The translations under genes and the position numbers were made by a program. From Thermodesulfobacterium sp. TA1 (GTDB lineage: Bacteria; Desulfobacterota; Thermodesulfobacteria; Thermodesulfobacteriales; Thermodesulfobacteriaceae), in assembly GCF_008630935.1 (NCBI RefSeq), contig NZ_CP043908.1, positions 1,426,001 to 1,490,000 on the forward strand: a DNA stretch of 64,000 nucleotides. The letters are read 5' to 3'. Position 1 is the stretch's first letter. Each line of letters opens with the position of its first letter. Below are positions 181-16,331 of the stretch, one piece after another. The notes below the pieces were generated by a model. The model ran no database searches. It worked only from the letters and a program-made list of their open reading frames with translations, and had not been told where the DNA came from.

Positions 181-681
181 TTAACTATAGCAAAATTCAT
201 AGTAACTACAATTTTTGCAGTAAGGCTTTTGTATTGTAGGAGGTAGAGGAGAATTTAAAATCTGGTTTATCTCTTTTTTAAAATTTTCGATTATTCTTTC
301 GTCTTCCTCAACAAATTTAACCTCAATTTTTTTGAAAAGTTTTGGGTAATGAATAATTCCTGAAGAACAATTTATCCCCAATTTTTTCAGTTTGTATATA
401 TAAAACTTAACCTGCCAAATATGAGCAGGCTCCAATTTTCTTGACTTTTTTATCTCATGAACCACAATCCCATCTTTTGTTTTTATAAAATCTATTTTTA
501 CATCTCCGAGTTCTATATCTTTATACTTTTCCTTCTTAAAAGCTTCTTCATCTATTAATTTACCAAGCTCCACATAATCAGAATATTTTTCAAAACTTAT
601 CTGATGAGAAAAAAGCCAGAGTTTTCTTTTACAGACTACATAATAAGCTACCTGTGTGCCTGTGAAACTTTCTTTCAACAT
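181..681 (-). CDS. cas4: CRISPR-associated exonuclease Cas4
   Basis: A 166-residue RecB/Dna2-like nuclease that, in the family, trims and selects PAM-bearing ends of new spacers together with Cas1-Cas2. Visible features are the N-terminal cysteine in YYVVCKRKLWLF, the nuclease acidic residues in GDVKIDF and the core EIKKS motif, a QVKFYIYKL helix, and three C-terminal cysteines in YCKNCSYYEFCYS. With Cys17 these complete the four-cysteine iron-sulfur site. Length is normal for Cas4. A GGAG ribosome site precedes the ATG. It is transcribed away from the effector operon and leads straight into cas1. Confidence 0.95.
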   Translation of the reverse strand: MLKESFTGTQVAYYVVCKRKLWLFSHQISFEKYSDYVELGKLIDEEAFKKEKYKDIELGDVKIDFIKTKDGIVVHEIKKSRKLEPAHIWQVKFYIYKLKKLGINCSSGIIHYPKLFKKIEVKFVEEDERIIENFKKEINQILNSPLPPTIQKPYCKNCSYYEFCYS

Positions 682-997: not shown

Positions 998-2926
998 ATG
1001 AGTAAACCAAGAATTGAGGAACATGTAAACCAAAAATCAGGCAAATCTTCTAATAATCCGAATCAACTTCAATTTACCGGCAACTGGTTTATCGATGCAG
1101 GGATTTTGGGGTTCGTGAATTTGATGGAAGAAGTTTATGGGTGGGATTTAGAAAAACTAAGAGAAAGAATTAGTGAAGAACCAGAGGTCGTGTATTATGG
1201 ATACTTTCCGTTTGCTTATTTCTATAACCTTTCAAAAAAAGATAAGAAAGAATTAAAAACGGAAGCGATTAGCTTTATAGAGAAAAATAAAGGATTAGGC
1301 AAAAAAATTTTAGAAGAAATTTGGTGGAAGTTTATTACTGAACTTTTTAGGGAGACTTGGGTTGAAAAGAAATTAGAAATAATGCACGAATCAGAATGCT
1401 ATAAGGGAGGCAAGGTAAAGGACGCGAGAGGTAAAGTAAAGTCTCAATATGCTGATGATGGGTACATAAATTTAGTTAGGGACAGAGAGGAGTTGATAGG
1501 TAATATATTAAAAAACAATAATTTTAAAGAAAAAATTAAGGAAGTCCTCGGAAAACGTAAAGAATTTATTAAAGAAGGATCACATAATTTAGAAATTGAT
1601 GATATAAGATGCTTAGAAGAAAATTTAGGCAACTTTACGGATGATGATCTTCGTAAAGAAATTGAAAATATTGTAAGGAAACACAAAGAACTCGAAAATT
1701 ACCTTAACAGAATTTGGGATGTAGTTAAGTCGAAAAATGTTTCTAAAGACAAGAGCGTATTCTATAGAATCCCGATTGACAGTAGTTTCTTCAAAAACTA
1801 TCTATTTTTCAACAACTCAAAAGGAATTTTTGAACAGCTGGAAGACTTAAAAAATCTTTTAGATGGCGACACAAGTTATTCAGATTATTTATCTAAAATC
1901 GATAAAACCATCAGCAAATTTTTACCGTCAGATAAAGAGTTCCCTAATATTTCATATACTAAATTTAGAGCAGAAACAATACTGAAAGATGTGCCATACT
2001 TATTTGTTTATCTTATTAATTTCTTGAATGCTTTTGTTAACGTAAGAGGAATCGGTAATGTGTTTTTCTATAGCAATGATTTGGATTTCACATATCGGAT
2101 TAATAAAAAGATTAAAGTTTATATTAAGGATAGCGATAAAAATCTGAAGATACTTAGATTGACTTGGCAGGCGATAATAGACACATTGGTTGAAACCGAA
2201 ACAACTTGGGTTCTCGAAAATATGTATTTAATCCGATACAAATCCCTTTCTCAACAGGATTTAATAGGAGTAGAATACATAGGAATTTTAAAACTACAGG
2301 CAAGCATAATCCTCGATGATACGATAAGAGACACTATAAATAGAAATATAGCTGTAAAAGCGTCAAACGGGAAAATAGAACAGCAGGTTTGGCTCCTTGA
2401 AGAATTTATAAAACAAAAACCCCTTTTACCGCATCTTATAAACAACATTCATCTTTACTTAGCAGAAAGGTTAAACTTGAGTGAGGAAAGTGTCGGAAGA
2501 ATAAAAAGAAGAATGGTTTACGCGAGCATAGTAGATGCAAAAGTAAGAGAATTTGGGCATGATAACAGATTGTTCGGAGATTATTTCTTTAATAGCTACA
2601 GACAGCTTTTATCAGAAATAAAGGATGATGCGATAAAAGCTTTTGGTGCGGTTAGAACAATTAGTGAAATACTTGAAGATAGTGATGAGAGAAAAAGTTA
2701 TGCTAATCTTTTACTAAGTGCAATAAGGAGAGACAATAAACACCGGTTTGTAAACACGGTTTTAAAAGCTCTTGTTGAGAAAAAGGGGGAAGAAAAAGTT
2801 GTTAAAACTCTAATGAGTTTTATATTCGATAAAATACTCTCTAACGATCTAAGCTGGAAAAATTACGCTCTAATTTTGGTTGCAGGTCTGCTTGGAGGAG
2901 GTGAAGCTGATGGAGAAGAAGAATGA
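998..2926 (+). CDS. cas8b: Type I-B Cascade large subunit Cas8b (Cst1-like)
   Basis: A 642-residue large subunit of the crRNA-guided surveillance complex, expected to recognise the PAM. Evidence is mainly position (first gene before cas7-cas5-cas3) and the N-terminal FTGNWFIDAGILGF segment (residues 26-39), typical of the Cst1/Cas8a1-type families. No CxxC zinc motif is visible, unlike many Cst1 proteins. The rest is mostly helical and poorly conserved, as usual for Cas8. The C-terminal ~90 residues resemble the small protein encoded next. An in-frame ATG at 2513 behind an AAGAAGA stretch could start an internal 137-residue small subunit. The ribosome site at the main ATG is weak. The final 17 bases overlap the next gene. 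Confidence 0.82.
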   Translation: MSKPRIEEHVNQKSGKSSNNPNQLQFTGNWFIDAGILGFVNLMEEVYGWDLEKLRERISEEPEVVYYGYFPFAYFYNLSKKDKKELKTEAISFIEKNKGLGKKILEEIWWKFITELFRETWVEKKLEIMHESECYKGGKVKDARGKVKSQYADDGYINLVRDREELIGNILKNNNFKEKIKEVLGKRKEFIKEGSHNLEIDDIRCLEENLGNFTDDDLRKEIENIVRKHKELENYLNRIWDVVKSKNVSKDKSVFYRIPIDSSFFKNYLFFNNSKGIFEQLEDLKNLLDGDTSYSDYLSKIDKTISKFLPSDKEFPNISYTKFRAETILKDVPYLFVYLINFLNAFVNVRGIGNVFFYSNDLDFTYRINKKIKVYIKDSDKNLKILRLTWQAIIDTLVETETTWVLENMYLIRYKSLSQQDLIGVEYIGILKLQASIILDDTIRDTINRNIAVKASNGKIEQQVWLLEEFIKQKPLLPHLINNIHLYLAERLNLSEESVGRIKRRMVYASIVDAKVREFGHDNRLFGDYFFNSYRQLLSEIKDDAIKAFGAVRTISEILEDSDERKSYANLLLSAIRRDNKHRFVNTVLKALVEKKGEEKVVKTLMSFIFDKILSNDLSWKNYALILVAGLLGGGEADGEEE

Positions 2927-3275
2927 ATATGAATTTTATTCGGTAAAACCGTGGGAGTTGAAAAATTTGAGAAATCTAACAAGAGAAGTATTCAGCAACA
3001 TAGGCACTGAAAAATCAAGGCAGAGGCTCGTTTACGACCTTCTAAACGCATTGAAAACGAACGACAGAAAACGATTTTTATGGCTAATTCTGAAAAACGT
3101 CAACAACATAAGTGTTGAGAAGAGTGAAAAAGTGAAGGAATTTGCGGAGCTCCTAAGCACTCTTCAGTTTGAACACGAAACAGTGGAGAATTTTGATAAA
3201 ATAGCTTATGCAATTGTTATGGGTATAATGTCTGGTGAATCTAAAACAGAAATAGGAGGTGATTCCAATGAGTAA
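2910..3275 (+). CDS. Probable Cas11-like small subunit, paralogous to the Cas8 C-terminus
   Basis: 121 residues from the ATG at 2910, which sits six bases after GGAGGAGGTG; a longer TTG start is possible but less likely. Helical, charged and soluble-looking. It aligns by eye without gaps to the end of the upstream Cas8: LLNALKTNDRKRFLWLILK here against LLSAIRRDNKHRFVNTVLK there, and both end in a similar V-x-G-I/L-M/L-x-G segment. Type I-B complexes are known to contain a Cas11 small subunit made by internal initiation inside cas8b. This gene is therefore probably a detached, diverged copy. It overlaps cas8b by 17 bases and cas7 by 8, so translation is likely coupled. Confidence 0.72.
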   Translation: MEKKNEYEFYSVKPWELKNLRNLTREVFSNIGTEKSRQRLVYDLLNALKTNDRKRFLWLILKNVNNISVEKSEKVKEFAELLSTLQFEHETVENFDKIAYAIVMGIMSGESKTEIGGDSNE

Positions 3276-4296
3276 TGAATCCAACGTTAAGTATATTTCG
3301 ATGGATATAGTTTTTTATGGCAACTCCTTAAACTACGATTGGGGTGGAGGGACAAACTACCAAGAACTTAAGAAGATAACAAAATGGGATGGTAGACAAT
3401 ATGTTTTGGTAAGCAGATACGCACTTAGATACAGTATATTGCACTGGGCGAATAAGCTATTTCCCGAAAAATGGAAGTTGGCAGGACAAAACGAATTACA
3501 TGTGGAAAAAGGAGAAGTTGTAAGACTTAAAAAGAAAGACAAGGAGTTCCTAGAAAAAATTTTCAAGGAATTTCCCGAATTTGATCTGTTTGGATTCATG
3601 ATTGCAGAAAAAGGCAGCGAGCAGGCAGCTTTAACAAGAACCTCACCTGTAAAAATAAGTCATGCCATATCACTGACACCTACAAATCTCGATGCGCATA
3701 CTATGGCAAATTTGGATATGGTCAGAAGAGCAGGTGGTAAGGGTAGCAATCCAGTGACGATTGAAGAAAAACCTGACTTTTACGTATACAACATTACAAT
3801 AGATGTCGAAAGAATCGGAAAATATCTTAAAGAGGAACACGGAGATGAAAAGATAGGAGATATTGTGATCGATCAGAATACGGCAAAAGAAAGAGTTGTT
3901 CAGTTAATTGAGACGGTATTAAACCTAAAAAGAGACATCAAGGGGAGAAGAGAAGACCTTTCACCATGGCTTGTTGTGCTTGGTATCTATAGGGACGGAA
4001 GATACGAGACATTCATTGACAAAATAATGTTAGAGAGAAAAACGCACTATAAAGTTAAGAGGACTTATAGGAAAGAGGGAGATACAGAAATAGTTGAAAA
4101 TGAAATTGAAGAAGGGTTGATGCCATTGTTCAAGATAGGGCTAACGGATAACGTTGACAACAACGCCGGATTGTATATTTACTATCGAAAAGACTTTTGC
4201 GATTACACACCGAAGAAAGAAGAACTAGAAGTGAAGGCAAAGGAAGATATTATTAAAAAAATTGAAGAAGCATTAAGATTGTCAACAGAAAATTAG
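3268..4296 (+). CDS. cas7: Type I-B Cascade backbone protein Cas7 (Cst2/DevR family)
   Basis: A 342-residue backbone subunit that polymerises along the crRNA spacer. The start chosen is the ATG eight bases after AGGAGG; an upstream GTG would add three residues. Family features are the N-terminal DIVFYGNSLNYDWGGGTNY followed by DGRQYVLVSRYALRYSILHW, and RTSPVKISHAISLTPTNLDAH in the middle, as in Cst2/DevR proteins. It overlaps the small-subunit gene by 8 bases and is followed 15 bases later by cas5, so it belongs to the same operon. Confidence 0.92.
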   Translation: MSNESNVKYISMDIVFYGNSLNYDWGGGTNYQELKKITKWDGRQYVLVSRYALRYSILHWANKLFPEKWKLAGQNELHVEKGEVVRLKKKDKEFLEKIFKEFPEFDLFGFMIAEKGSEQAALTRTSPVKISHAISLTPTNLDAHTMANLDMVRRAGGKGSNPVTIEEKPDFYVYNITIDVERIGKYLKEEHGDEKIGDIVIDQNTAKERVVQLIETVLNLKRDIKGRREDLSPWLVVLGIYRDGRYETFIDKIMLERKTHYKVKRTYRKEGDTEIVENEIEEGLMPLFKIGLTDNVDNNAGLYIYYRKDFCDYTPKKEELEVKAKEDIIKKIEEALRLSTEN

Positions 4297-4311
4297 ATTA
4301 AAAAGATAAAT

Positions 4312-5133
4312 ATGAATGAGAAAATAATATACGTTGAACTGTTCCAACCTTTTTCACAATACAGGAACCTATTCACTTTTTACTATGCGCAATCATATCC
4401 TCTACCGCCCAAAAGCACGGTAATAGGAATGCTGCAAAATGCAACTGACAGGTATTATGAGCTTGAGTTCTGGAAACTAAGAGTCAGCATTCACGGAGGA
4501 TTTGAGAGTGTGTTCTGGAACTACCAGCAGTTAATCAAGGGGTATGTAGAGGTTGATAGTAAATTAAAAGTAATAAATCAGGGGAAACTACTATACAATG
4601 AGGGTATTAAAGCCCAGAGAACTCCGGTTCACCAGCAAGAACTTTTTAATGGTCATCTCTACTTCTTTATTAAAGGACCTAAGGAAATCGTCGATGAAAT
4701 ACATTATGCTTTGGAAAAACCTAATAAAATACTGTCCCTCGGAAGAAGCGAGGATGTTGTGTACATAAGAAAAGTATTGGACATAAATCCCAAAAACATA
4801 GAAACAAAAACTGTAAAGAAAAACATCTGGTTAACGTATCCAACGTATATTAAGCTGAAAGCCAATGGAAAACGTTTTCCAATAAAAAACGAGAAGTTTC
4901 CTGTTTACTCGATTCCAGTTAGGGTGGAATTTTGGAATGATGGCAAGCCTGTCAAAAACAAAGCAGAAATCAACAAAAAAACTGAAAGAAAGGTTTGTTT
5001 TGAAACTGTTATCTACACAGGGCTTGATTATGTGGTTTATCTAAGCAAAGAAGTTAAAGTTGAGACATTTAAGATAAACCTGAACGGAAAAAATCTTATA
5101 TTTAAGATCCCTTCAGAATTCGGGTGGTTGTGA
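4312..5133 (+). CDS. cas5: Type I-B Cascade subunit Cas5 (Cas5t-like)
   Basis: A 273-residue RAMP protein that caps the 5' handle of the crRNA in Cascade. The N-terminus has the Cas5 pattern: IIYVELFQPFSQYRNLFTFYYAQ, then YPLPPKSTVIGML, the conserved P-x-x-S-T-V-x-G-M-L element. A central FESVFWNYQQL and later LGRSEDVVYI also fit the family. Its stop codon overlaps the cas3 start as TGATG, a typical coupled junction. The preceding ribosome site is weak (AAAAAGATAA). Confidence 0.92.
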   Translation: MNEKIIYVELFQPFSQYRNLFTFYYAQSYPLPPKSTVIGMLQNATDRYYELEFWKLRVSIHGGFESVFWNYQQLIKGYVEVDSKLKVINQGKLLYNEGIKAQRTPVHQQELFNGHLYFFIKGPKEIVDEIHYALEKPNKILSLGRSEDVVYIRKVLDINPKNIETKTVKKNIWLTYPTYIKLKANGKRFPIKNEKFPVYSIPVRVEFWNDGKPVKNKAEINKKTERKVCFETVIYTGLDYVVYLSKEVKVETFKINLNGKNLIFKIPSEFGWL

Positions 5134-7826
5134 TGAAGCTAATAGATTTGTTAAGGGCAAAATCCGAAGGCCAAGAGAGCCTTTTGTTTAAAGAGCACAT
5201 AATTGAGGCCCTACAAAGAGCAAAACAATTAAAGAATTTTATAGATGCAAACAAAGAATCCATAAAATGCCAGCAGTTAAAAGACATCGAATTTTTTGAG
5301 GCTTTAGCAACGGCTATAATTTTACATGATTTAGGAAAAGTAAATTACGAATTTCAAAAAATGGTGTATGACAAAGCTTCTGAAGAGTGGGAAAAAGTTA
5401 AGGAATTTCTTAAAGTATTGCGAAATGTTAATCTGAAGGATCACGAAGTACTGTCTTCTATCTGGGCTTCTATACTTTTAGATAACAGTGAATGGAACGC
5501 GAAAATTAGAACTGCTGTATTACTCCATCACTATAACGGGTACTTTGTAAATGAGAAAGACCTCATGGGAATTGTAGAAGACTATCGTGAGAACATAATG
5601 CTATATTTAAAGTTCTTGATTGAGAAAAAGGATGAAATTGATGATTTCTTAAATGATCTTTTAAACGAAATCAACGAAAAATTTGAAGAAGATTTTATAA
5701 AATCAGCTGTTAGTAAGATTCAAAAAATCAACGTTTTTGAAAGAGCAAAAGACCTTCTTGAAAAAATAGAAAATCGCGAAGACGATATATCTGAATTCGC
5801 AGATTTTTATAACATTAACAATGAAAATCCAGATTACGATTTTATGCTATTTCTTGGTTGTTTGAGGAGATGCGATTATTCTGCAAGCGGTGGCGTTGAT
5901 TTAGAGTTAGAGAAAATAAACAATATGGAAGATGTTTATACTACTCTGAAAGAGAGGATAAAAACCAAAGTTAAATCAGATTCATTATGGCAAGAAAACA
6001 TCTTAGAAAAAATAGATCCTCTAAAGCCTATAGTCCTGGTGGCACCTACAGGTTCTGGAAAAACAGAATTTGCACTGTTATGGGCAGAGAAAAATAATAG
6101 AAAGCTGATCTACACCTTACCCCTTAGAGTGGCGTTAAATGATCTTTTTTTTAGATTCAGAGAGGCGGATCATGCATATTTCGAAAAAGAATTCGTTGAT
6201 GTTTTGCATTCTACTGCGTTCATAGAATATCTGGGGAGAGAAAAAGTTTATGAATCGGGAGATATAGAAAAGAAGTTAACCGCAGCAAAACTCTTATCGT
6301 CTCCAATTTTACTAACTACGCCAGATCAGGTTTTTCTAACATCTTTAAACTACTACGGTTCGGATAAAGTTTTGGCCGTCTATCCATTATCTTCTATAGT
6401 GATTGATGAAGTTCAGACTTATGATGAAGAAATGGCATCCATAATAGTGAAAACGCTTCAAATTGTCCAAAAACTTGGTGGTGTTGTGATTGTGATGACA
6501 GCAACGCTGCCACCTTACTTTGAACCGTTCCTTAAAGGTGAAGTTGATTTTACAGATTTGCAGTTTGATTTTATAGATTTGCAGGATATTAAAGAAAATG
6601 TCAAGAACTACAACATCAAGAGGCATAAGATTAAGGTTGTAGATAAGGCTCTTGTTAAATACGTAGATAATGATAAAAAAGATAAAGAATTAAAAAAAGG
6701 TAAAAAAGATATAGATATATCGGATGAACTTGAGTTATGGCTCGATGAGTTCAAAGACAAAAACATGTTCATAGTCGTAAACAATGTTAGCAAGGCAATA
6801 GCTATCTACGAATGGTTAAAAAACAAAGATTATCCAAACATCTTTCTTTTGCACTCCCGATTAATCGAGAAAGAAAAAAGTAGGCGCATTAAGTTGATTA
6901 AGGAACTCATCAAACCTAACAAAAACGAAGAAGAGATTAGTAAACTAAAACAAGAAGGTGAAAAAATAAACCCAGATAAGCCAGCTATTGTTGTTGCAAC
7001 TCAAATTATCGAAGCCTCGGTTGATCTAGATTTTGACGCAATGATTACGGAGATTTCAACTATAGATAGTCAAATCCAGAGATGGGGTAGAGTCTATAGA
7101 AATAAGGATCAAGATTATAATAAAGAAGAGCCAAACATCGTTATTTTTGCCGGAGAGCAAGAAGAAGGTAAAACAAAAATAGACAAAGGAACTAAAGCGA
7201 TTTATGATAAAAAAGTTATAGAAAAAACAATCGAGGTTTTAAAAGAATTCGAAGGTAAAGTTCTGAACTACGACGATGAGAGAGCAATGGTAAATGAAGT
7301 TTTCAACAGAGAAGTCGAAGTTGAAGGTTATCAAGGAACACTTAAGGATTTTTACATTAAAAAAATCAGAGAAAACTTAGATTTCCTGAAATACTTTACA
7401 GTTGAAAAAAAGAGTCAAGCACAGCGGGTTTTTAGAAGAATAGCTGGAATTCAAGTGGTAATTCCTGAAATTATGAAGCATTATGGAGATGAATTAACAG
7501 AAAAGTTTGCCGAAATCGTTGAAAATCTAGATTTAAACAAAATAACATGGGAAGAAATTGTGGACGAACTTAATAAGAAGTTATCAAATGGTTTAAATAA
7601 AATAGAAACTAAATGGATGCTTAAGAAAATCCTTTACGAGTATTCGATTAACATCCCAGTATTTTACTGGGAAGGTGGGAAACTCTCAAACTTAAGAACT
7701 CATGAATTCAAAGGATTTCAGGTTTTAAAACTTTCAAGAGAGCAAGCAGAAGAAGTATACTGGTATGGAATTGATAAAATACTCAAAAAAGAGGAAGAAG
7801 AAGTATATTTTGATAATATTATCTAA
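5133..7826 (+). CDS. cas3: CRISPR helicase-nuclease Cas3
   Basis: About 897 residues from the ATG that overlaps the cas5 stop; a GTG nine bases earlier is an alternative. It is a single-strand nuclease plus SF2 helicase that degrades DNA bound by Cascade. The N-terminal HD domain shows IILHDLGK (His65-Asp66) and LLHHYNGY around 130. The helicase shows Walker A VLVAPTGSGKT (about 305-311), DEVQ as motif II (425-428), MTATLP as motif III (456-460) and QRWGRVYR as motif VI (649-656). HD and helicase are fused in one chain, the common arrangement. All key motifs are intact, so interference should be functional. Confidence 0.97.
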   Translation: MKLIDLLRAKSEGQESLLFKEHIIEALQRAKQLKNFIDANKESIKCQQLKDIEFFEALATAIILHDLGKVNYEFQKMVYDKASEEWEKVKEFLKVLRNVNLKDHEVLSSIWASILLDNSEWNAKIRTAVLLHHYNGYFVNEKDLMGIVEDYRENIMLYLKFLIEKKDEIDDFLNDLLNEINEKFEEDFIKSAVSKIQKINVFERAKDLLEKIENREDDISEFADFYNINNENPDYDFMLFLGCLRRCDYSASGGVDLELEKINNMEDVYTTLKERIKTKVKSDSLWQENILEKIDPLKPIVLVAPTGSGKTEFALLWAEKNNRKLIYTLPLRVALNDLFFRFREADHAYFEKEFVDVLHSTAFIEYLGREKVYESGDIEKKLTAAKLLSSPILLTTPDQVFLTSLNYYGSDKVLAVYPLSSIVIDEVQTYDEEMASIIVKTLQIVQKLGGVVIVMTATLPPYFEPFLKGEVDFTDLQFDFIDLQDIKENVKNYNIKRHKIKVVDKALVKYVDNDKKDKELKKGKKDIDISDELELWLDEFKDKNMFIVVNNVSKAIAIYEWLKNKDYPNIFLLHSRLIEKEKSRRIKLIKELIKPNKNEEEISKLKQEGEKINPDKPAIVVATQIIEASVDLDFDAMITEISTIDSQIQRWGRVYRNKDQDYNKEEPNIVIFAGEQEEGKTKIDKGTKAIYDKKVIEKTIEVLKEFEGKVLNYDDERAMVNEVFNREVEVEGYQGTLKDFYIKKIRENLDFLKYFTVEKKSQAQRVFRRIAGIQVVIPEIMKHYGDELTEKFAEIVENLDLNKITWEEIVDELNKKLSNGLNKIETKWMLKKILYEYSINIPVFYWEGGKLSNLRTHEFKGFQVLKLSREQAEEVYWYGIDKILKKEEEEVYFDNII

Positions 7827-8206
7827 ATTTTAAAGGTGGGACCAATTTCATAATTTATTTTAATTATTTTAACCCCTCTGAAAAGTATTTAAATTCTTAG
7901 AGATTGATTTAAAATTTTGAAGTAAAAAAGTGAAAAAAGAGATATTGAGACGAAAGTATAGAAAGTTGATAAACTACAGTGCTTTCTCTAAAAAATTTTT
8001 GTACAATAAAAAGAACACTGTGTTTTAATGCTTAGACGGGATGAGACAAACAGATTTTTTAAAATACTTAGTAAAAAATTTCTGTTCTTTGACAATTGAA
8101 TAAAAGTTGATTAATTTAATAAATTTTTATTCTTTGCTTATAAGTTGACGCAAAAATGAGATTTTATTTTTTTTGAAATTAAAGTATATTTTAAATTTAA
8201 ACTACG
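7827..8206 (+). promoter_or_regulatory. CRISPR leader region
   Basis: 380 bases of strongly AT-rich, gene-free DNA between cas3 and the first repeat. Leaders lie at the young end of an array; all degenerate repeats lie at the opposite end, supporting this side as leader. A candidate array promoter is TTGACA at 8089-8094 with TTAATT 16 bases on. A partly symmetric ACAGTG (7976-7981) and CACTGT (8017-8022) pair is present. No open reading frame of note. Confidence 0.8.
8089..8116 (+). promoter_or_regulatory. Candidate promoter of the CRISPR array transcript
   Basis: TTGACA followed after 16 bases by TTAATT, ending about 90 bases before the first repeat. The -35 is exact; the -10 is poor, and other AT-rich hexamers nearby could serve. 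Confidence 0.4.
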
Positions 8207-11200
8207 GTTTTAAGCCTACCTATGAGGAATTGAAATTTTCTTTTTGCAGTTTATAAAACTTATACATTCCCTGTTTTAAGCCTACCTATGAGGAATTGAA
8301 ATAAGGACGAAATTGTTATTTACGACGAAACTTTAAACGTTTTAAGCCTACCTATGAGGAATTGAAATACTCAGACGTCTTGTGCAGATATATCTTAATT
8401 TTCTGTTTTAAGCCTACCTATGAGGAATTGAAATCGCCTCCCGCAAAATCGCCGCTAAAAATTCCTTTAAGTTTTAAGCCTACCTATGAGGAATTGAAAT
8501 TTTACTTTTAAACACTTAAAAGCAAACATATTTCGGTTTTAAGCCTACCTATGAGGAATTGAAATTTTTTTGTGCTACTTTTTCTAAAGCTGGTCCCTTT
8601 CGTTTTAAGCCTACCTATGAGGAATTGAAATGCAAGCATTGCTCTTGCAAGAACACTTCCCATTTTGCGTTTTAAGCCTACCTATGAGGAATTGAAATTC
8701 AGGACATAGCGGATGTAGAAGTTTATAGTCCAGAGTTTTAAGCCTACCTATGAGGAATTGAAATTGACTTCAAGCTCTACAAGCTCGTCTCCTAAGAACT
8801 GTTTTAAGCCTACCTATGAGGAATTGAAATAGTAGAAAAGGCTGTAGAGGATTTCATTGCTTGGAGTTTTAAGCCTACCTATGAGGAATTGAAATAAAGA
8901 AAATATTTTTCGTAAGTGTCCTCTTTGTGGAGTTTTAAGCCTACCTATGAGGAATTGAAATGAAAGGTTATTAATCAATCTTCAGACCTACGCAAGGTTT
9001 TAAGCCTACCTATGAGGAATTGAAATCATCCTCCCCCGCATTGACGAAATAGAAGACGAGAAGTTTTAAGCCTACCTATGAGGAATTGAAATTTATGTAT
9101 TGAATAGCCTTGTCAATTCTTTTCAGCATGTTTTAAGCCTACCTATGAGGAATTGAAATTACGAGTTTTCTGTCTTCTGTGCAAACTTTGCTTGTGTTTT
9201 AAGCCTACCTATGAGGAATTGAAATCGGGATCTTTCATAGGGCTTGGTATTCACGCAAACTGTTTTAAGCCTACCTATGAGGAATTGAAATGATAAGGTT
9301 TCAGCGGTATATGTCGCTGGATTTGAAGTTTTAAGCCTACCTATGAGGAATTGAAATTTAGAAATAGCTGGTGCGTCAATTCCTGAAAGAAGAGTTTTAA
9401 GCCTACCTATGAGGAATTGAAATCCGGGATGGGATGGGATTTACGGACTTTGGAGAAGAGTTTTAAGCCTACCTATGAGGAATTGAAATCTGTAATAGAA
9501 ATAGAAATTAGAAGAAATGAATAAAGTTTTAAGCCTACCTATGAGGAATTGAAATAAGTAGGTGAGGAATGGGAAGTATCCATTATTGATAAGTTTTAAG
9601 CCTACCTATGAGGAATTGAAATTTCGTATTTGTCAATGACTTTATAAACTTTTTCCTCAGTTTTAAGCCTACCTATGAGGAATTGAAATCATAGACAGGC
9701 TCAGGGACATACTCAGATTTTTTCGGTTTTAAGCCTACCTATGAGGAATTGAAATATAAATGTCTCACCAATAACCGCATCTGTTAAATCTGTTTTAAGC
9801 CTACCTATGAGGAATTGAAATAATTTTTGGTGAGCCGTTTGGGGTGGATGGCAGTTATGTTTTAAGCCTACCTATGAGGAATTGAAATAACCTGATAGTG
9901 ATATAGAATTTTTTGATTTCTTAGCGTTTTAAGCCTACCTATGAGGAATTGAAATCCCTTATATTAGTTATATTTCTACCCATTGAAGCTTCGTTTTAAG
10001 CCTACCTATGAGGAATTGAAATCACTAAGACATAATCTTCGTTGATTTCTCTTTCAAGTTTTAAGCCTACCTATGAGGAATTGAAATTCTGGTAATCTTT
10101 GCTTTAAAGCAAAGTGAATACCTGTTTTAAGCCTACCTATGAGGAATTGAAATCTTTTTTTCTGCTCTTTTTATCTCTTCTTCGTTAACGTTTTAAGCCT
10201 ACCTATGAGGAATTGAAATATTAGTTCTAATTGATTATTTTCAATAAATAGAGCTGTTTTAAGCCTACCTATGAGGAATTGAAATAAATCGATGCGGGGT
10301 ATTTTTGAAGAGAAGAAGCTTGTTTTAAGCCTACCTATGAGGAATTGAAATGAGGGCGGCGAGGTTTTAGATCGTCAACTATATGAAGTTTTAAGCCTAC
10401 CTATGAGGAATTGAAATTTGGAGTAATTCCCGAGCTTCATCAACAGTAATTCTGTTTTAAGCCTACCTATGAGGAATTGAAATTATACTTTCAAATAAAC
10501 ACCTCATATCATCATTATAGTTTTAAGCCTACCTATGAGGAATTGAAATCTATTTGTCGAAGTCTTTGGCAAGCATGATGACCCCAGTTTTAAGCCTACC
10601 TATGAGGAATTGAAATTGTTTGGTTGTTTTGATATTAAATGTGTAAAATGTTGTTTTAAGCCTACCTATGAGGAATTGAAATTTTGGTGTCCCAGGTGGC
10701 AGCTTTTGCTGCCACCCAGTTTTAAGCCTACCTATGAGGAATTGAAATGAAGAAAAAAGGAACTTATTTTCTGACAGGATAAGGTTTTAAGCCTACCTAT
10801 GAGGAATTGAAATTCTCCTAACATACCGAAATTCAAGTGTCCGTTATGGTTTTAAGCCTACCTATGAGGAATTGAAATCTGGGGCTTTTTGCATATTGGC
10901 TTGTTTATTTATTAGTTTTAAGCCTACCTATGAGGAATTGAAATGCCGTGTAAAGCCCCTTTATGAATTGTTTAGTAATTGTTTTAAGCCTACCTATGAG
11001 GAATTGAAATATTTTATAACCAAATACATTGATAGACTGCTAAATCGTTTTAAGCCTACCTATGAGGAATTGAAATCAGGTTGGCAGAGGGGCTATGAGC
11101 TTTGGAGAAAATGTTTTAAGCCTACCTATGAGGAATTGAAATTTTGTCGTTTTTGCAACAGATAATGAGACACATAGGTTTTAAGCCTACCTATGAGGAA

Positions 11201-14200
11201 TTGAAATTACGTCGATAATGGTATTTTTGATGATAACAAAAATGTTTTAAGCCTACCTATGAGGAATTGAAATCAAAAATGAGGGGACACTTTCAGGAGA
11301 GAATGTCTCGTTTTAAGCCTACCTATGAGGAATTGAAATGAGCCGGCGAAGGGATCTAAAATTATGTCATTAAGCGTTTTAAGCCTACCTATGAGGAATT
11401 GAAATAGGTAGGTTTTCTTGCTCTTCTTTTTCTCTGAAGGGTTTTAAGCCTACCTATGAGGAATTGAAATTACCCCGCAATGGAACGAGAAAATATTTAT
11501 TATTCCGGTTTTAAGCCTACCTATGAGGAATTGAAATAAGATCTTTATAAATGTCTTTATAGTGCTTTTTAAGGTTTTAAGCCTACCTATGAGGAATTGA
11601 AATCTCTCTTTCATCTCATCATATATCTTTTTCGCAATTAGTTTTAAGCCTACCTATGAGGAATTGAAATTCTTCTACATACAACTTCCTCAACATCTCT
11701 TTCTCTGTTTTAAGCCTACCTATGAGGAATTGAAATTGAAGCTTCATTTCTTGAATTAATGCACTAATCGTAGTTTTAAGCCTACCTATGAGGAATTGAA
11801 ATTCTTGGATTTCTTTTCCACGGTAATGATTTAACGAGTTTTAAGCCTACCTATGAGGAATTGAAATGCTGTCTTTCGGTTTTACAGTTACATCAAACAA
11901 ATCCGTTTTAAGCCTACCTATGAGGAATTGAAATTATTGATAAAGGAAGGTTTTTTATCGCAAAGCCTAGTTTTAAGCCTACCTATGAGGAATTGAAATA
12001 AAAAAAACAAAACACTAAGAACCTAAAGCAAACTCGTTTTAAGCCTACCTATGAGGAATTGAAATTTTACAATAAAAACAAATGGATTTGAGTTCGACGT
12101 TGTTTTAAGCCTACCTATGAGGAATTGAAATAAAAAGAAAAATTACATACCAAGCCCTGTCTACGAGTTTTAAGCCTACCTATGAGGAATTGAAATAAAT
12201 AAGATCCATCGTTAAATTGCTCAAGGTCTTTGTTTTAAGCCTACCTATGAGGAATTGAAATAAAGTTGTTTGTACTCATAACACACCTCCTTTGCTAGTT
12301 TTAAGCCTACCTATGAGGAATTGAAATGTGCATGCCCTCATTTGGGGAGCATGGGGGACAGGGGTTTTAAGCCTACCTATGAGGAATTGAAATGCCTCTC
12401 TGTTTAGCTAACTTTGCTATCTCTTCATGTTTTAAGCCTACCTATGAGGAATTGAAATTTGGTTGAAAGATAGTAATTTTCTAATATTATACTAGTTTTA
12501 AGCCTACCTATGAGGAATTGAAATAGTTGAAGTTTAATCGTAAAAAAGCCATAGACTTTTCGTTTTAAGCCTACCTATGAGGAATTGAAATCTCGCTATA
12601 TCCTCTTCATTCAGAAGTTTTCTCTTCGTTTTAAGCCTACCTATGAGGAATTGAAATAATAATGATTTGGAGTTTTTTGATTTCTTAGCTCAATGTTTTA
12701 AGCCTACCTATGAGGAATTGAAATGAATGAAACAAAAGTAGATATATTATCAGTTGCACGGGTTTTAAGCCTACCTATGAGGAATTGAAATGTGGTGTGG
12801 ATGTGGATGTTTTATTAGTCTTAACAAGGGTTTTAAGCCTACCTATGAGGAATTGAAATCAGCATACACCACCAACAGAGATATGGCATCCATGTGGTTT
12901 TAAGCCTACCTATGAGGAATTGAAATACGACTACTATTTTATCCTTGTTTTCTACTACCTCAGTTTTAAGCCTACCTATGAGGAATTGAAATGACCAAAT
13001 CTCTCTTGCAAGAAGGATGAAGTAGTTTGTTTTAAGCCTACCTATGAGGAATTGAAATTGCTCTTCTTCTTTATGTTGGTATTGTATTTGCCTTGTTTTA
13101 AGCCTACCTATGAGGAATTGAAATATTCTAATTTCAGCCATTTGCGCGTAATCAAACTCAGTTTTAAGCCTACCTATGAGGAATTGAAATCACAATTTGG
13201 GTCGTCACAGAAGTGATATATATTTTGTTTTAAGCCTACCTATGAGGAATTGAAATACTACATCAAGTTTGTTTTGACCATCCGCTCTGAACGGTTTTAA
13301 GCCTACCTATGAGGAATTGAAATTTATAAAGATGAACCTCCGTTCTTTTTACCAAGAGTTTTAAGCCTACCTATGAGGAATTGAAATACATGTACCTAAT
13401 GAGGACTACTTTGAATACTTCCCGGTTTTAAGCCTACCTATGAGGAATTGAAATCTCTGTGAAAAATTCGTCATTACGAATCAATTCTTCGTTTTAAGCC
13501 TACCTATGAGGAATTGAAATACATGTCCTACATCCTTTTTTCACTTTTCAGTGAAAGTTTTAAGCCTACCTATGAGGAATTGAAATAAAAAGGGTTTAGA
13601 AAAAGAAGAAAAACGGCTTTTGGTTTTAAGCCTACCTATGAGGAATTGAAATCGCATTTTCCCTATTTGGCTTTTTAACAAAAACACTGTTTTAAGCCTA
13701 CCTATGAGGAATTGAAATTTTTATAACAACTAATACACCATTTAAAAATTTACAAGTTTTAAGCCTACCTATGAGGAATTGAAATAAACGTTCGCAATCT
13801 TCATTCGGAATATAAACAGGCGTTTTAAGCCTACCTATGAGGAATTGAAATGCTGTTTGTCCTAAATATGAACCTCTTCCGTTTGAAGTTTTAAGCCTAC
13901 CTATGAGGAATTGAAATATGCCTGCTCCTTTTCGTTTTGCACGAAAACGCTGCGTTTTAAGCCTACCTATGAGGAATTGAAATCGATTCATGATTATGAA
14001 TTGTTTGAATTTTTCTTCAAGTTTTAAGCCTACCTATGAGGAATTGAAATGACCCGCGGGGGGCTACGTCGATTGTAGTAAACGAGTTTTAAGCCTACCT
14101 ATGAGGAATTGAAATGCGAGGATCTCTCGCGGTTTCTTAAGCGATTGCTCAAGTTTTAAGCCTACCTATGAGGAATTGAAATAAGGAAAAGCCCCCGTTG

Positions 14201-15572
14201 GACGACGAGGGGCAGTTAGGTTTTAAGCCTACCTATGAGGAATTGAAATCGAGAACTTCAGCCGGTTTTTTAGTTGACTGCTGTGTTTTAAGCCTACCTA
14301 TGAGGAATTGAAATTGGAGAAGGCAAGTTAAGGCAAAAAGCTTTTTCGTAGTTTTAAGCCTACCTATGAGGAATTGAAATAAAGAAAGCTTAGCTGGAGC
14401 TTCTTTTTTACGTGAGGTTTTAAGCCTACCTATGAGGAATTGAAATCTTAACGGTAAGGTTCCAGTAAAGGGTTTTCGGCTTGGTTTTAAGCCTACCTAT
14501 GAGGAATTGAAATAAAAAAAAATCAAAAAAAATGTTTACCGTCAGCCTGGTTTTAAGCCTACCTATGAGGAATTGAAATTTGTAACGCTGATAACTAATC
14601 CACAGCTTTGGGGATGGTTTTAAGCCTACCTATGAGGAATTGAAATTTTTCAGAAACTGAGCAAGATTTGTCGCTTTTACACGTTTTAAGCCTACCTATG
14701 AGGAATTGAAATCTGCTAACGTCTTTTTTTCTGCAATAATTAAATAATGTTTTAAGCCTACCTATGAGGAATTGAAATTCTATGAAGCAGATAAATTATG
14801 TAAAAGATTTGATGGGTTTTAAGCCTACCTATGAGGAATTGAAATGTTTTTACTGTCTCTCTGTATATAGTTTCTTTTTATAGTTTTAAGCCTACCTATG
14901 AGGAATTGAAATGTTCAGGTAGGAAGTGTAAAGGTGAGGTTTCCGAGGGGTTTTAAGCCTACCTATGAGGAATTGAAATTACAAGTTTAAAGTAGAACTG
15001 ACTTCTACAGATAGAGTTTTAAGCCTACCTATGAGGAATTGAAATGAAGAAATAATAAGTAGAGTTTATGATTATTTGATGTTTTAAGCCTACCTATGAG
15101 GAATTGAAATTGAGGAGGGTAAGAAAGTGCCGGGTGTTGTGCGGTGTTTTAAGCCTACCTATGAGGAATTGAAATGGATGCGAAAAATCAAGTGTTAAAC
15201 TAGTTTTATATAGTTTTAAGCCTACCTATGAGGAATTGAAAGCTTTATGGAGCGTTTATTTATAATGATACTTTAGCTGGTTTTAAGCCTACCTATGAGG
15301 AATTGAAAGAAGCTTTTAGCTTGTTAAACATTTTACCTTTGATAGGTTTTAAGCCTACCTATGAGGAATTGAAACTTTGCTAATTCTTCATCGTATAAAT
15401 CTATTAACTCCGTTGCGAGCCTACCTATGAGGAATTGAAACACTTTCTAAAAACTTTCTCAATTTTTCAACTAAGTGTTGCGAGCCTACCTATGAGGAAT
15501 TGAAACTTCGATATATTTTTAGAAAATAAAGAAATAGTGGATGTTTTAAGCCTACCTATGAGGAATTGAAAG
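8207..15572 (+). CRISPR. CRISPR array, 112 repeats and 111 spacers (type I-B)
   Basis: Counted by hand: 112 copies of a 30-base repeat beginning GTTTTAAGCCTACC and ending GAGGAATTGAAAT, with unit lengths of 64-68 bases, so spacers are 34-38 bases. The first 106 repeats appear identical; the last six vary. The 3' end ATTGAAA(T/C/G) matches the 8-base 5' handle typical of type I-B crRNAs, giving rightward transcription. This agrees with the leader on the left and decay on the right. Cas6 encoded just beyond the array should process the transcript. Many spacers translate into plausible protein fragments, consistent with viral coding origin. Open frames crossing repeats are artefacts. Confidence 0.99.
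15213..15572 (+). repeat. Degenerate distal (oldest) repeats of the array
   Basis: Repeats 107 and 108 (15213, 15280) end in GAAAG, 109 (15346) ends in GAAAC, 110 and 111 (15412, 15477) begin GTTGCGAG and end GAAAC, and 112 (15543) begins GTTTTAAG and ends GAAAG. Terminal decay is normal, but here the outermost repeat is closer to consensus than the two before it, giving a mosaic. Confidence 0.93.
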
Positions 15573-15596: not shown

Positions 15597-16331
15597 TTAT
15601 TTTATAACTTCAAACATTCCAAAACCTTGGGAATTTTTTGCACCAAGGCCTGCATCGTAAGCAAGTCTTAAAAGTTCTGGATCTCCCCTTAGCACAAAAT
15701 TTCCCATCCATCCCTTTATCACAAAACCCTTGTAAATAATTATCTTCTCGTTTCCCTTTTCCAGCTTAATAGGCTCTATAAAAAACTCCTCTGAAGGTGG
15801 CATCTTCTTGTAAAATGCCTTATACTTCTTTATGATATTTTCCTTCACAAGCATTGAAAAATTTTTCTCGTTTGGATGATAGTAATAAGTCTTCTTTTTA
15901 CCATCAGCACCATAAAGTGTGCTATAAACTGTCAAAGGTGATAGCATCCGTATAAGGATTTCTTTTCTTATCTCAGGGGATGGAAGAACCTTTATAGACT
16001 CAAGCCAAACTCTGTTTACGTCAAGCTGTATCTCTTTATTATACAAAAAATTTGAGGTAAGACTCAAAAGCATTTCTGTATAAGGCGATGAGATAAAGAA
16101 CTTGAAAGGCGAAGAAATTTTAAACTTATCTCTTTCTTTTTCTAATTTTCCAAAAATTCGAGAAAAGGTAAAAAATTTAAACCTCCTCTTTTGGTAAACA
16201 AACCCTTCGTTGTGAAGTTTTTCAGCAAGGGCTCTGTCTAAAAGATGATAAATCAGCCCTTGCAAAACTTCGTTATAATGAATAGGTAAAACAGCTTCCT
16301 TTTCAGAAACAAAAGTAATGGCTAATCTCAT
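15597..16331 (-). CDS. cas6: CRISPR pre-crRNA endoribonuclease Cas6
   Basis: A 244-residue RAMP endoribonuclease that cuts each repeat to release crRNAs. The C-terminal glycine-rich loop GLGAKNSQGFGMFEV (228-242) is diagnostic. The N-terminal LPIHYNEVLQGLIYHLL carries histidines where family catalytic residues occur. It lies on the opposite strand to the effector operon, with its stop only 24 bases from the last repeat, so it is transcribed convergently with the array. No terminator is visible in the 24-base AT-rich gap. Separation of cas6 from the rest of Cascade by the array is uncommon but not unique. Confidence 0.95.
   Translation of the reverse strand: MRLAITFVSEKEAVLPIHYNEVLQGLIYHLLDRALAEKLHNEGFVYQKRRFKFFTFSRIFGKLEKERDKFKISSPFKFFISSPYTEMLLSLTSNFLYNKEIQLDVNRVWLESIKVLPSPEIRKEILIRMLSPLTVYSTLYGADGKKKTYYYHPNEKNFSMLVKENIIKKYKAFYKKMPPSEEFFIEPIKLEKGNEKIIIYKGFVIKGWMGNFVLRGDPELLRLAYDAGLGAKNSQGFGMFEVIK

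What the first reader, a model, noticed from the sequence alone, without database searches (positions are those of the whole stretch)
2910..3275. A detached small subunit that looks like a copy of the Cas8 C-terminal domain
The 121-residue gene after cas8b aligns with the C-terminus of that same Cas8 without gaps over about 30 residues (LLNALKTNDRKRFLWLILK against LLSAIRRDNKHRFVNTVLK), and the two chains end in similar V-x-G-hydrophobic-x-G segments. Known type I-B complexes obtain Cas11 by internal translation inside cas8b. Here duplication seems to have produced a separate gene while the Cas8 copy persists. This would be a visible intermediate in the origin of stand-alone small subunits such as those of type I-A, and the complex could contain two kinds of small subunit.
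Basis: partly seen in the sequence, partly recalled or inferred. Interest (0 to 1): 0.72.

Follow-up and report, generated by a model that had tools for sequence, protein, structure and literature searches.

The report
Stand-alone small subunit of I-B Cascade
A bacterial CRISPR defence system, resembling those of heat-loving archaea, has a separate gene for the small "belly" protein that most type I-B systems are thought to make from inside a larger gene; the gene is real, old and shared across its clade, so it is an informative natural experiment and not a newly caught evolutionary intermediate.

Summary
The ORF at 2910-3275 is real. It is homologous over its full length to the C-terminal domain of the Cas8b encoded just upstream: family profiles align over 98 columns (97% probability, E 4e-11), although BLASTP of the two window sequences is marginal (E 0.019). 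It matches PADLOC's Cas11b small-subunit model (1.4e-26); that library also holds a Cas11b model titled 'Small subunit of some of I-B systems'. All 23 related loci with an intact cas8b 3' end carry both copies, in hydrothermal archaea and Aquificota. On a tree the separate genes form one branch (99/99) and the Cas8b domains another (82/82), and the small gene is no closer to its own Cas8b than to others. The duplication is therefore ancient, not a visible intermediate. The separate genes have good ribosome sites, in the window AGGAGGTG inside the last cas8b codons. None of 22 cas8b genes here has a Shine-Dalgarno-backed internal start, whereas six of six I-B cas8 genes without the extra gene do. 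Best reading: a I-B clade in which a dedicated cas11b gene replaces internal translation. The direction of the event and subunit counts are inferred.

The parts
998..2926 (+). cas8b, large subunit (642 aa)
   Evidence: PADLOC PDLC01542 Cas8b E 4e-191; 34-56% identity to relatives
2597..2923 (+). Cas8b C-terminal small-subunit-like domain (about residues 534-642), helices H534-558, H562-577, H581-593, H599-614, H620-633
   Evidence: hhalign to the small-gene family E 4.4e-11; PADLOC Cas11b model hits residues 565-636 at E 5e-4; AlphaFold2 helices
2896..2903 (+). Shine-Dalgarno AGGAGGTG of the small gene, encoded within the terminal Gly codons of cas8b
   Evidence: sequence; start-site scan
2910..3275 (+). 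cas11b, stand-alone small subunit (121 aa), predicted five-helix core plus a short N-terminal helix
   Evidence: PADLOC PDLC01541 Cas11b 1.4e-26; conserved in 23 loci; AlphaFold2 pLDDT 83
3268..4296 (+). cas7 (Cst2/DevR family); likely start is ATG 3268 behind AGGAGGTGAT, overlapping cas11b by 8 nt
   Evidence: TIGR02585 E 2.9e-54; sequence
4312..5133 (+). cas5b
   Evidence: PF09704 1.9e-25; PADLOC PDLC01271 5e-44
5124..7826 (+). cas3 (HD plus helicase)
   Evidence: TIGR01587 1.9e-67, TIGR01596 9e-18
181..681 (-). cas4; cas1 and cas2 follow just outside the window
   Evidence: PF01930 2.8e-53; neighbouring ORFs in L066
8194..15572 (+). CRISPR array, 30-nt repeats at about 66-nt spacing, roughly 110 units
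15597..16331 (-). cas6, on the far side of the array
   Evidence: HMM of neighbouring cas6 genes from relatives, E 6e-57

Best explanation
The gene at 2910-3275 is cas11b, the dedicated small subunit of a type I-B Cascade. An ancient duplication (direction unknown) left one copy fused as the Cas8b C-terminal domain and one as a separate gene. The separate gene is made by overlapping, probably coupled, translation from the cas8b-cas11b-cas7 mRNA (its Shine-Dalgarno lies in the last cas8b codons). It most likely supplies the two or three small subunits of the Cascade belly that line up behind the single Cas8b C-terminal domain along the Cas7 backbone and hold the non-target strand of the R-loop. 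It thus replaces the internal translation start that supplies Cas11 in other I-B systems. Shown here: homology, conservation, gene order, ribosome sites, absence of a Shine-Dalgarno-backed internal start in cas8b, ancient divergence. Inferred: assembly into the complex, stoichiometry, DNA contacts.
For: Profile homology to the Cas8b C-terminal domain. Cas11b model match in all 10 members tested, best 8e-53. Gene order cas8b-cas11b-cas7-cas5-cas3 in relatives from Thermococcales, Archaeoglobaceae, Thermoplasmatota, Aenigmatarchaeota and Aquificota; 23 of 23 loci with an intact cas8b 3' end have it. Good ribosome sites in front of most small genes. 0 of 22 cas8b genes in this clade against 6 of 6 I-B cas8 genes without the extra gene have a Shine-Dalgarno-backed internal start (Fisher P 3e-6, but loci are not independent). 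Same order of five helices in the two AlphaFold2 models. Pairwise distances of the small protein track those of the Cas8b C-terminal domain (r 0.89) and, beyond that, of Cas7 (partial r 0.27, P 0.0025), as expected for partners in one belly. In the solved Synechocystis I-B Cascade the Cas8b C-terminal domain and three Cas11b form the belly (PMC11096372).
Against: No expression or purification data. Foldseek of both models against the PDB gives no significant match (best small-subunit hits E 1.7-3.4; Cas8b none). The Thermococcales cas8b genes keep an ATG about 98 codons from the end with AAGGA at a poor distance, so weak internal initiation there is not excluded. Adjacent position could by itself explain part of the distance correlation. 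The overall absence of an internal start is not below what synonymous shuffling gives (1.3 expected): it shows absence, not selection against it.
Confidence: 0.86

Rival explanations
1. One reading: a recent duplication caught midway, with the Cas8b copy on its way to loss, showing how stand-alone small subunits such as I-A Csa5 arose.
For: Both copies coexist and are clearly homologous.
Against: Two separate clades, 99/99 and 82/82, across bacterial and archaeal hosts; own-locus identity 18.5% equals other-locus identity 18.3%; the Cas8b domain is well conserved in all loci; no Csa5 family hit.
Confidence: 0.05
2. The complex uses two interchangeable small-subunit sources: the separate protein and an internally translated Cas8b fragment.
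For: An in-frame ATG at 2513 would give a 137-residue C-terminal fragment; Thermococcales share an ATG with AAGGA about 98 codons from the end.
Against: The window ATG has no Shine-Dalgarno and is not conserved; two Archaeoglobaceae cas8b genes have no ATG at all in the stretch.
Confidence: 0.06
3. The separate gene is the older form and the Cas8b C-terminal domain arose by fusion of a copy of it, so that systems with internal translation are derived by loss of the separate gene. (This differs from the best explanation in history only; the function today would be the same.)
For: The separate family is at least as close to Cst1-type Cas8 C-terminal domains (hhalign score 65) as the clade's own Cas8b domain is (score 47).
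Against: The tree is unrooted and long branches meet, so it cannot choose.
Confidence: 0.3

Closest known systems
PADLOC Cas11b models PDLC01541, PDLC01190 ('Small subunit of some of I-B systems'), PDLC01193
   Same: PDLC01541 matches this protein at 1.4e-26 and all 10 tested relatives
   Different: A library entry; no paper describing such a stand-alone I-B subunit was found in the open library searched
Internally translated Cas11b of type I-B (Synechocystis PMC11096372, Haloferax PMC11899642, proposed for Thermotoga maritima PMC13199841)
   Same: Homologous role, expected belly position next to the Cas8b C-terminal domain
   Different: There one gene gives both proteins, so sequences are identical; here two genes with about 18% identity
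Cst1-type Cas8b (Listeria, Acetoanaerobium, Lactobacillus loci L074-L076)
   Same: C-terminal domain homologous to both copies; same gene order otherwise
   Different: No separate small gene; a Shine-Dalgarno-backed internal start lies 104-114 codons from the end
Type I-E and I-A Cascades (separate Cas11 plus a large subunit)
   Same: Separate small-subunit gene beside a large subunit, as reviewed in PMC13199841 and PMC3727216
   Different: No detectable sequence similarity to Cse2 or Csa5 families

Membership tests
Stand-alone Cas11b (PADLOC PDLC01541) | Profile match | tested here: met
   E 1.4e-26, residues 12-109 of 121
Stand-alone Cas11b (PADLOC PDLC01541) | Own start codon and ribosome site, separate frame next to cas8b and cas7 | tested here: met
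   ATG 2910 with AGGAGGTG
Stand-alone Cas11b (PADLOC PDLC01541) | Present in the purified Cascade in several copies | not testable with these tools
   needs mass spectrometry or cryo-EM
Type I-B CRISPR-Cas | cas8b, cas7 (Cst2), cas5b, cas3 with cas1-cas2-cas4 and cas6 | tested here: met
   effector genes, cas4 and cas6 by profile; cas1 and cas2 recognised only by reading the ORFs next to cas4
Internally translated Cas11b | Shine-Dalgarno-backed in-frame start inside cas8b | tested here: not met
   none in window cas8b, 0 of 22 in the clade
Csa5 (type I-A small subunit) | Match to a Csa5 family model | tested here: not met
   no Csa5 hit in Pfam, NCBIfam or PADLOC
Cas11 fold | Helical bundle like solved small subunits | tested here: inconclusive
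   five-helix bundle, pLDDT 83; three of the top six PDB hits are small subunits (Csm complex chain B twice, I-A Cascade chain E) but E 1.7-3.4

The most novel reading that the evidence does not exclude
An undescribed functional subclass of type I-B: the two copies have divided the work, Cas8b's domain fixed as a specialised first belly subunit and the separate Cas11b as the repeating ones, giving an asymmetric belly unlike internally translated I-B complexes, in which both are identical. The presence or absence of the separate gene predicts whether cas8b carries an internal start.
Probability: 0.5. Interest if true: 0.5.

Novelty: new member of a known kind. Interest (0 to 1): 0.4.

Why it matters
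Recent papers state that I-B systems make Cas11 only from inside cas8b (for example PMC13199841). This clade shows a second solution, with a measurable trade: separate gene present, internal start absent. It gives a natural pair of architectures for testing what a distinct Cas8 domain and small subunit add, and a thermophilic I-B Cascade that could be reconstituted without the hidden internal start that failed for Thermotoga maritima in E. coli.

Tried and rejected
Pfam and NCBIfam gave no family for the small protein or Cas8b. Relatives in the host's own phylum: none with the small subunit among 98 other genomes or with this Cas8b among 394 others, so the locus was probably acquired horizontally. 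Plasmid, phage and viral collections gave no close relatives, apart from a weak Listeria hit that turned out to be a Cst1 C-terminal domain. PDB sequence profiles found nothing meaningful. Foldseek of the full Cas8b model was uninformative. Searches for PDLC02050 and PDLC00966 Cas8b genomes as outgroups found nothing; plasmid-collection Cst1 loci were used instead.

Full report
Locus. The window starts beside a type I-B CRISPR-Cas locus: cas4 (181-681, minus; cas1 and cas2 next to it outside the window, recognised by reading the ORFs), then cas8b 998-2926, the small gene 2910-3275, cas7 (Cst2 family), cas5b 4312-5133, cas3 5124-7826, a CRISPR array from about 8194 to 15570, and cas6 on the other strand at 15597-16331.

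Observation. Its ATG at 2910 lies 6 nt behind AGGAGGTG (2896-2903), a Shine-Dalgarno sequence formed by the last glycine codons of cas8b, and the two genes overlap by 17 nt. With relatives it becomes unambiguous: the small-gene family and the Cas8b family align over 98 columns at 97.2% probability (E 4.4e-11), only at the Cas8b C-terminus. Non-overlapping Cas8b segments score 11-14, the real domain 75, and 200 shuffled versions at most 22.

Relatives. A scan of genome contigs with Cas8b found 15 loci, mainly archaeal genomes of hydrothermal type plus Aquificota and Deferribacteres. Searching related groups added Thermococcales-group genomes and one more relative in the phylum of Archaeoglobaceae. 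In all 23 loci whose cas8b 3' end and downstream DNA are present, the window included, the small gene follows cas8b directly. The other loci stop at contig ends or are small cas8b fragments. The host's own phylum lacks this Cas8b elsewhere (1 of 395 genomes, the window's own), so the locus probably came by horizontal transfer.

Age of the duplication. A tree of 21 small proteins, 21 Cas8b C-terminal domains and 3 Cst1-type C-terminal domains puts all small proteins on one side of a branch (99/99) and all Cas8b domains of the clade on another (82/82). A small protein is no more similar to its own Cas8b domain (18.5% identity) than to those of other loci (18.3%). The split is thus older than the sampled clade, with no sign of recent copying or gene conversion. 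The tree is unrooted and has long branches, so it does not tell which form came first. Cst1-type C-terminal domains are homologous to both: hhalign score 65 to the small family, 47 to the clade's Cas8b domain.

Translation. I looked for in-frame start codons backed by at least 5 nt of Shine-Dalgarno match at proper distance, giving C-terminal products of 90-155 residues. None of 22 cas8b genes with a neighbouring small gene has one (1.3 expected under synonymous shuffling). Six of six I-B cas8 genes without a neighbouring small gene have one: Listeria, Acetoanaerobium, Lactobacillus and three archaeal Csh1-type genes, whose individual chance rates are 0.07-0.46. The product of those rates is about 5e-5 (my multiplication). 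The loci are related, so the Fisher P of 3e-6 overstates the evidence, and the three archaeal genes come from a different Cas8b subfamily (small family against Csh1 C-terminal domains: hhalign probability 0.5%).

Structure and co-variation. AlphaFold2 models of the small protein (pLDDT 83) and of Cas8b (pLDDT 79) show the same order of five helices, the two central ones of equal length (16 and 13 residues) at aligned positions. Distances between small proteins follow those between Cas8b C-terminal domains (r 0.89) more closely than the latter follow their own Cas8b core (r 0.59), and follow Cas7 beyond that (partial r 0.27, P 0.0025). This fits joint packing in the belly, but adjacent genes that are exchanged together would give part of the same signal.

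Mechanism. Most likely the gene supplies the repeated small subunits of the belly, next to the single Cas8b C-terminal domain, to hold the displaced strand. That arrangement is known for Synechocystis I-B, where Cas8b's C-terminal domain and three Cas11b form the belly (PMC11096372), and the small subunits there come from inside cas8b. Membership in the complex and copy number here are inferred.

Known or new. PADLOC, a 2023 library, contains this family as Cas11b and another model titled 'Small subunit of some of I-B systems'. In the open papers searched, recent texts still list only I-A and I-E as having separate cas11 genes (PMC13199841; PMC11899642). The gene is therefore a member of a catalogued but, as far as I could find, undescribed kind. 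That Cas8 C-terminal regions may contain the small subunit was proposed in 2011 (PMC3150331).

Noticed in passing
L070:2567-4430 (minus): A different I-B system (Csh1-type Cas8b, genome G932 in the Thermoplasmatota-group search) has cas8b broken exactly before the small-subunit domain: a 480-aa N-terminal gene ending GAAGGTGAGTAG followed one base later by ATG of a C-terminal gene. Looks like a stand-alone small subunit made by fission; the second copy in the same genome (L081) is fused. The frames differ, so a one-base assembly error is not excluded.
   Followed up: partly
window 15597-16331 (minus): cas6 sits beyond the CRISPR array on the opposite strand, whereas in most relatives it directly precedes cas8b.
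   Followed up: partly
window 998-7826: The operon is a mosaic: cas7 and the small gene are nearest to the Aenigmatarchaeota locus L010, Cas8b core to L004, cas3 to L008.
   Followed up: partly
window 3259-3275: The mechanical ORF start of cas7 (GTG 3259) is probably wrong; ATG 3268 lies behind AGGAGGTGAT and overlaps the small gene by 8 nt.
   Followed up: yes
window 15408-15510: Two repeats near the far end of the array carry a variant start (GTTGCGAG instead of GTTTTAAG), and a further standard-type repeat follows at about 15543.
   Followed up: no
L066:7800-8045 (upstream of the window): An ORF that reads like the end of a transposase lies near cas2, perhaps a remnant of the transfer of the locus.
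   Followed up: no
L077: A Lysinibacillus plasmid carries a broken Cst1-type cas8 in several frames.
   Followed up: no
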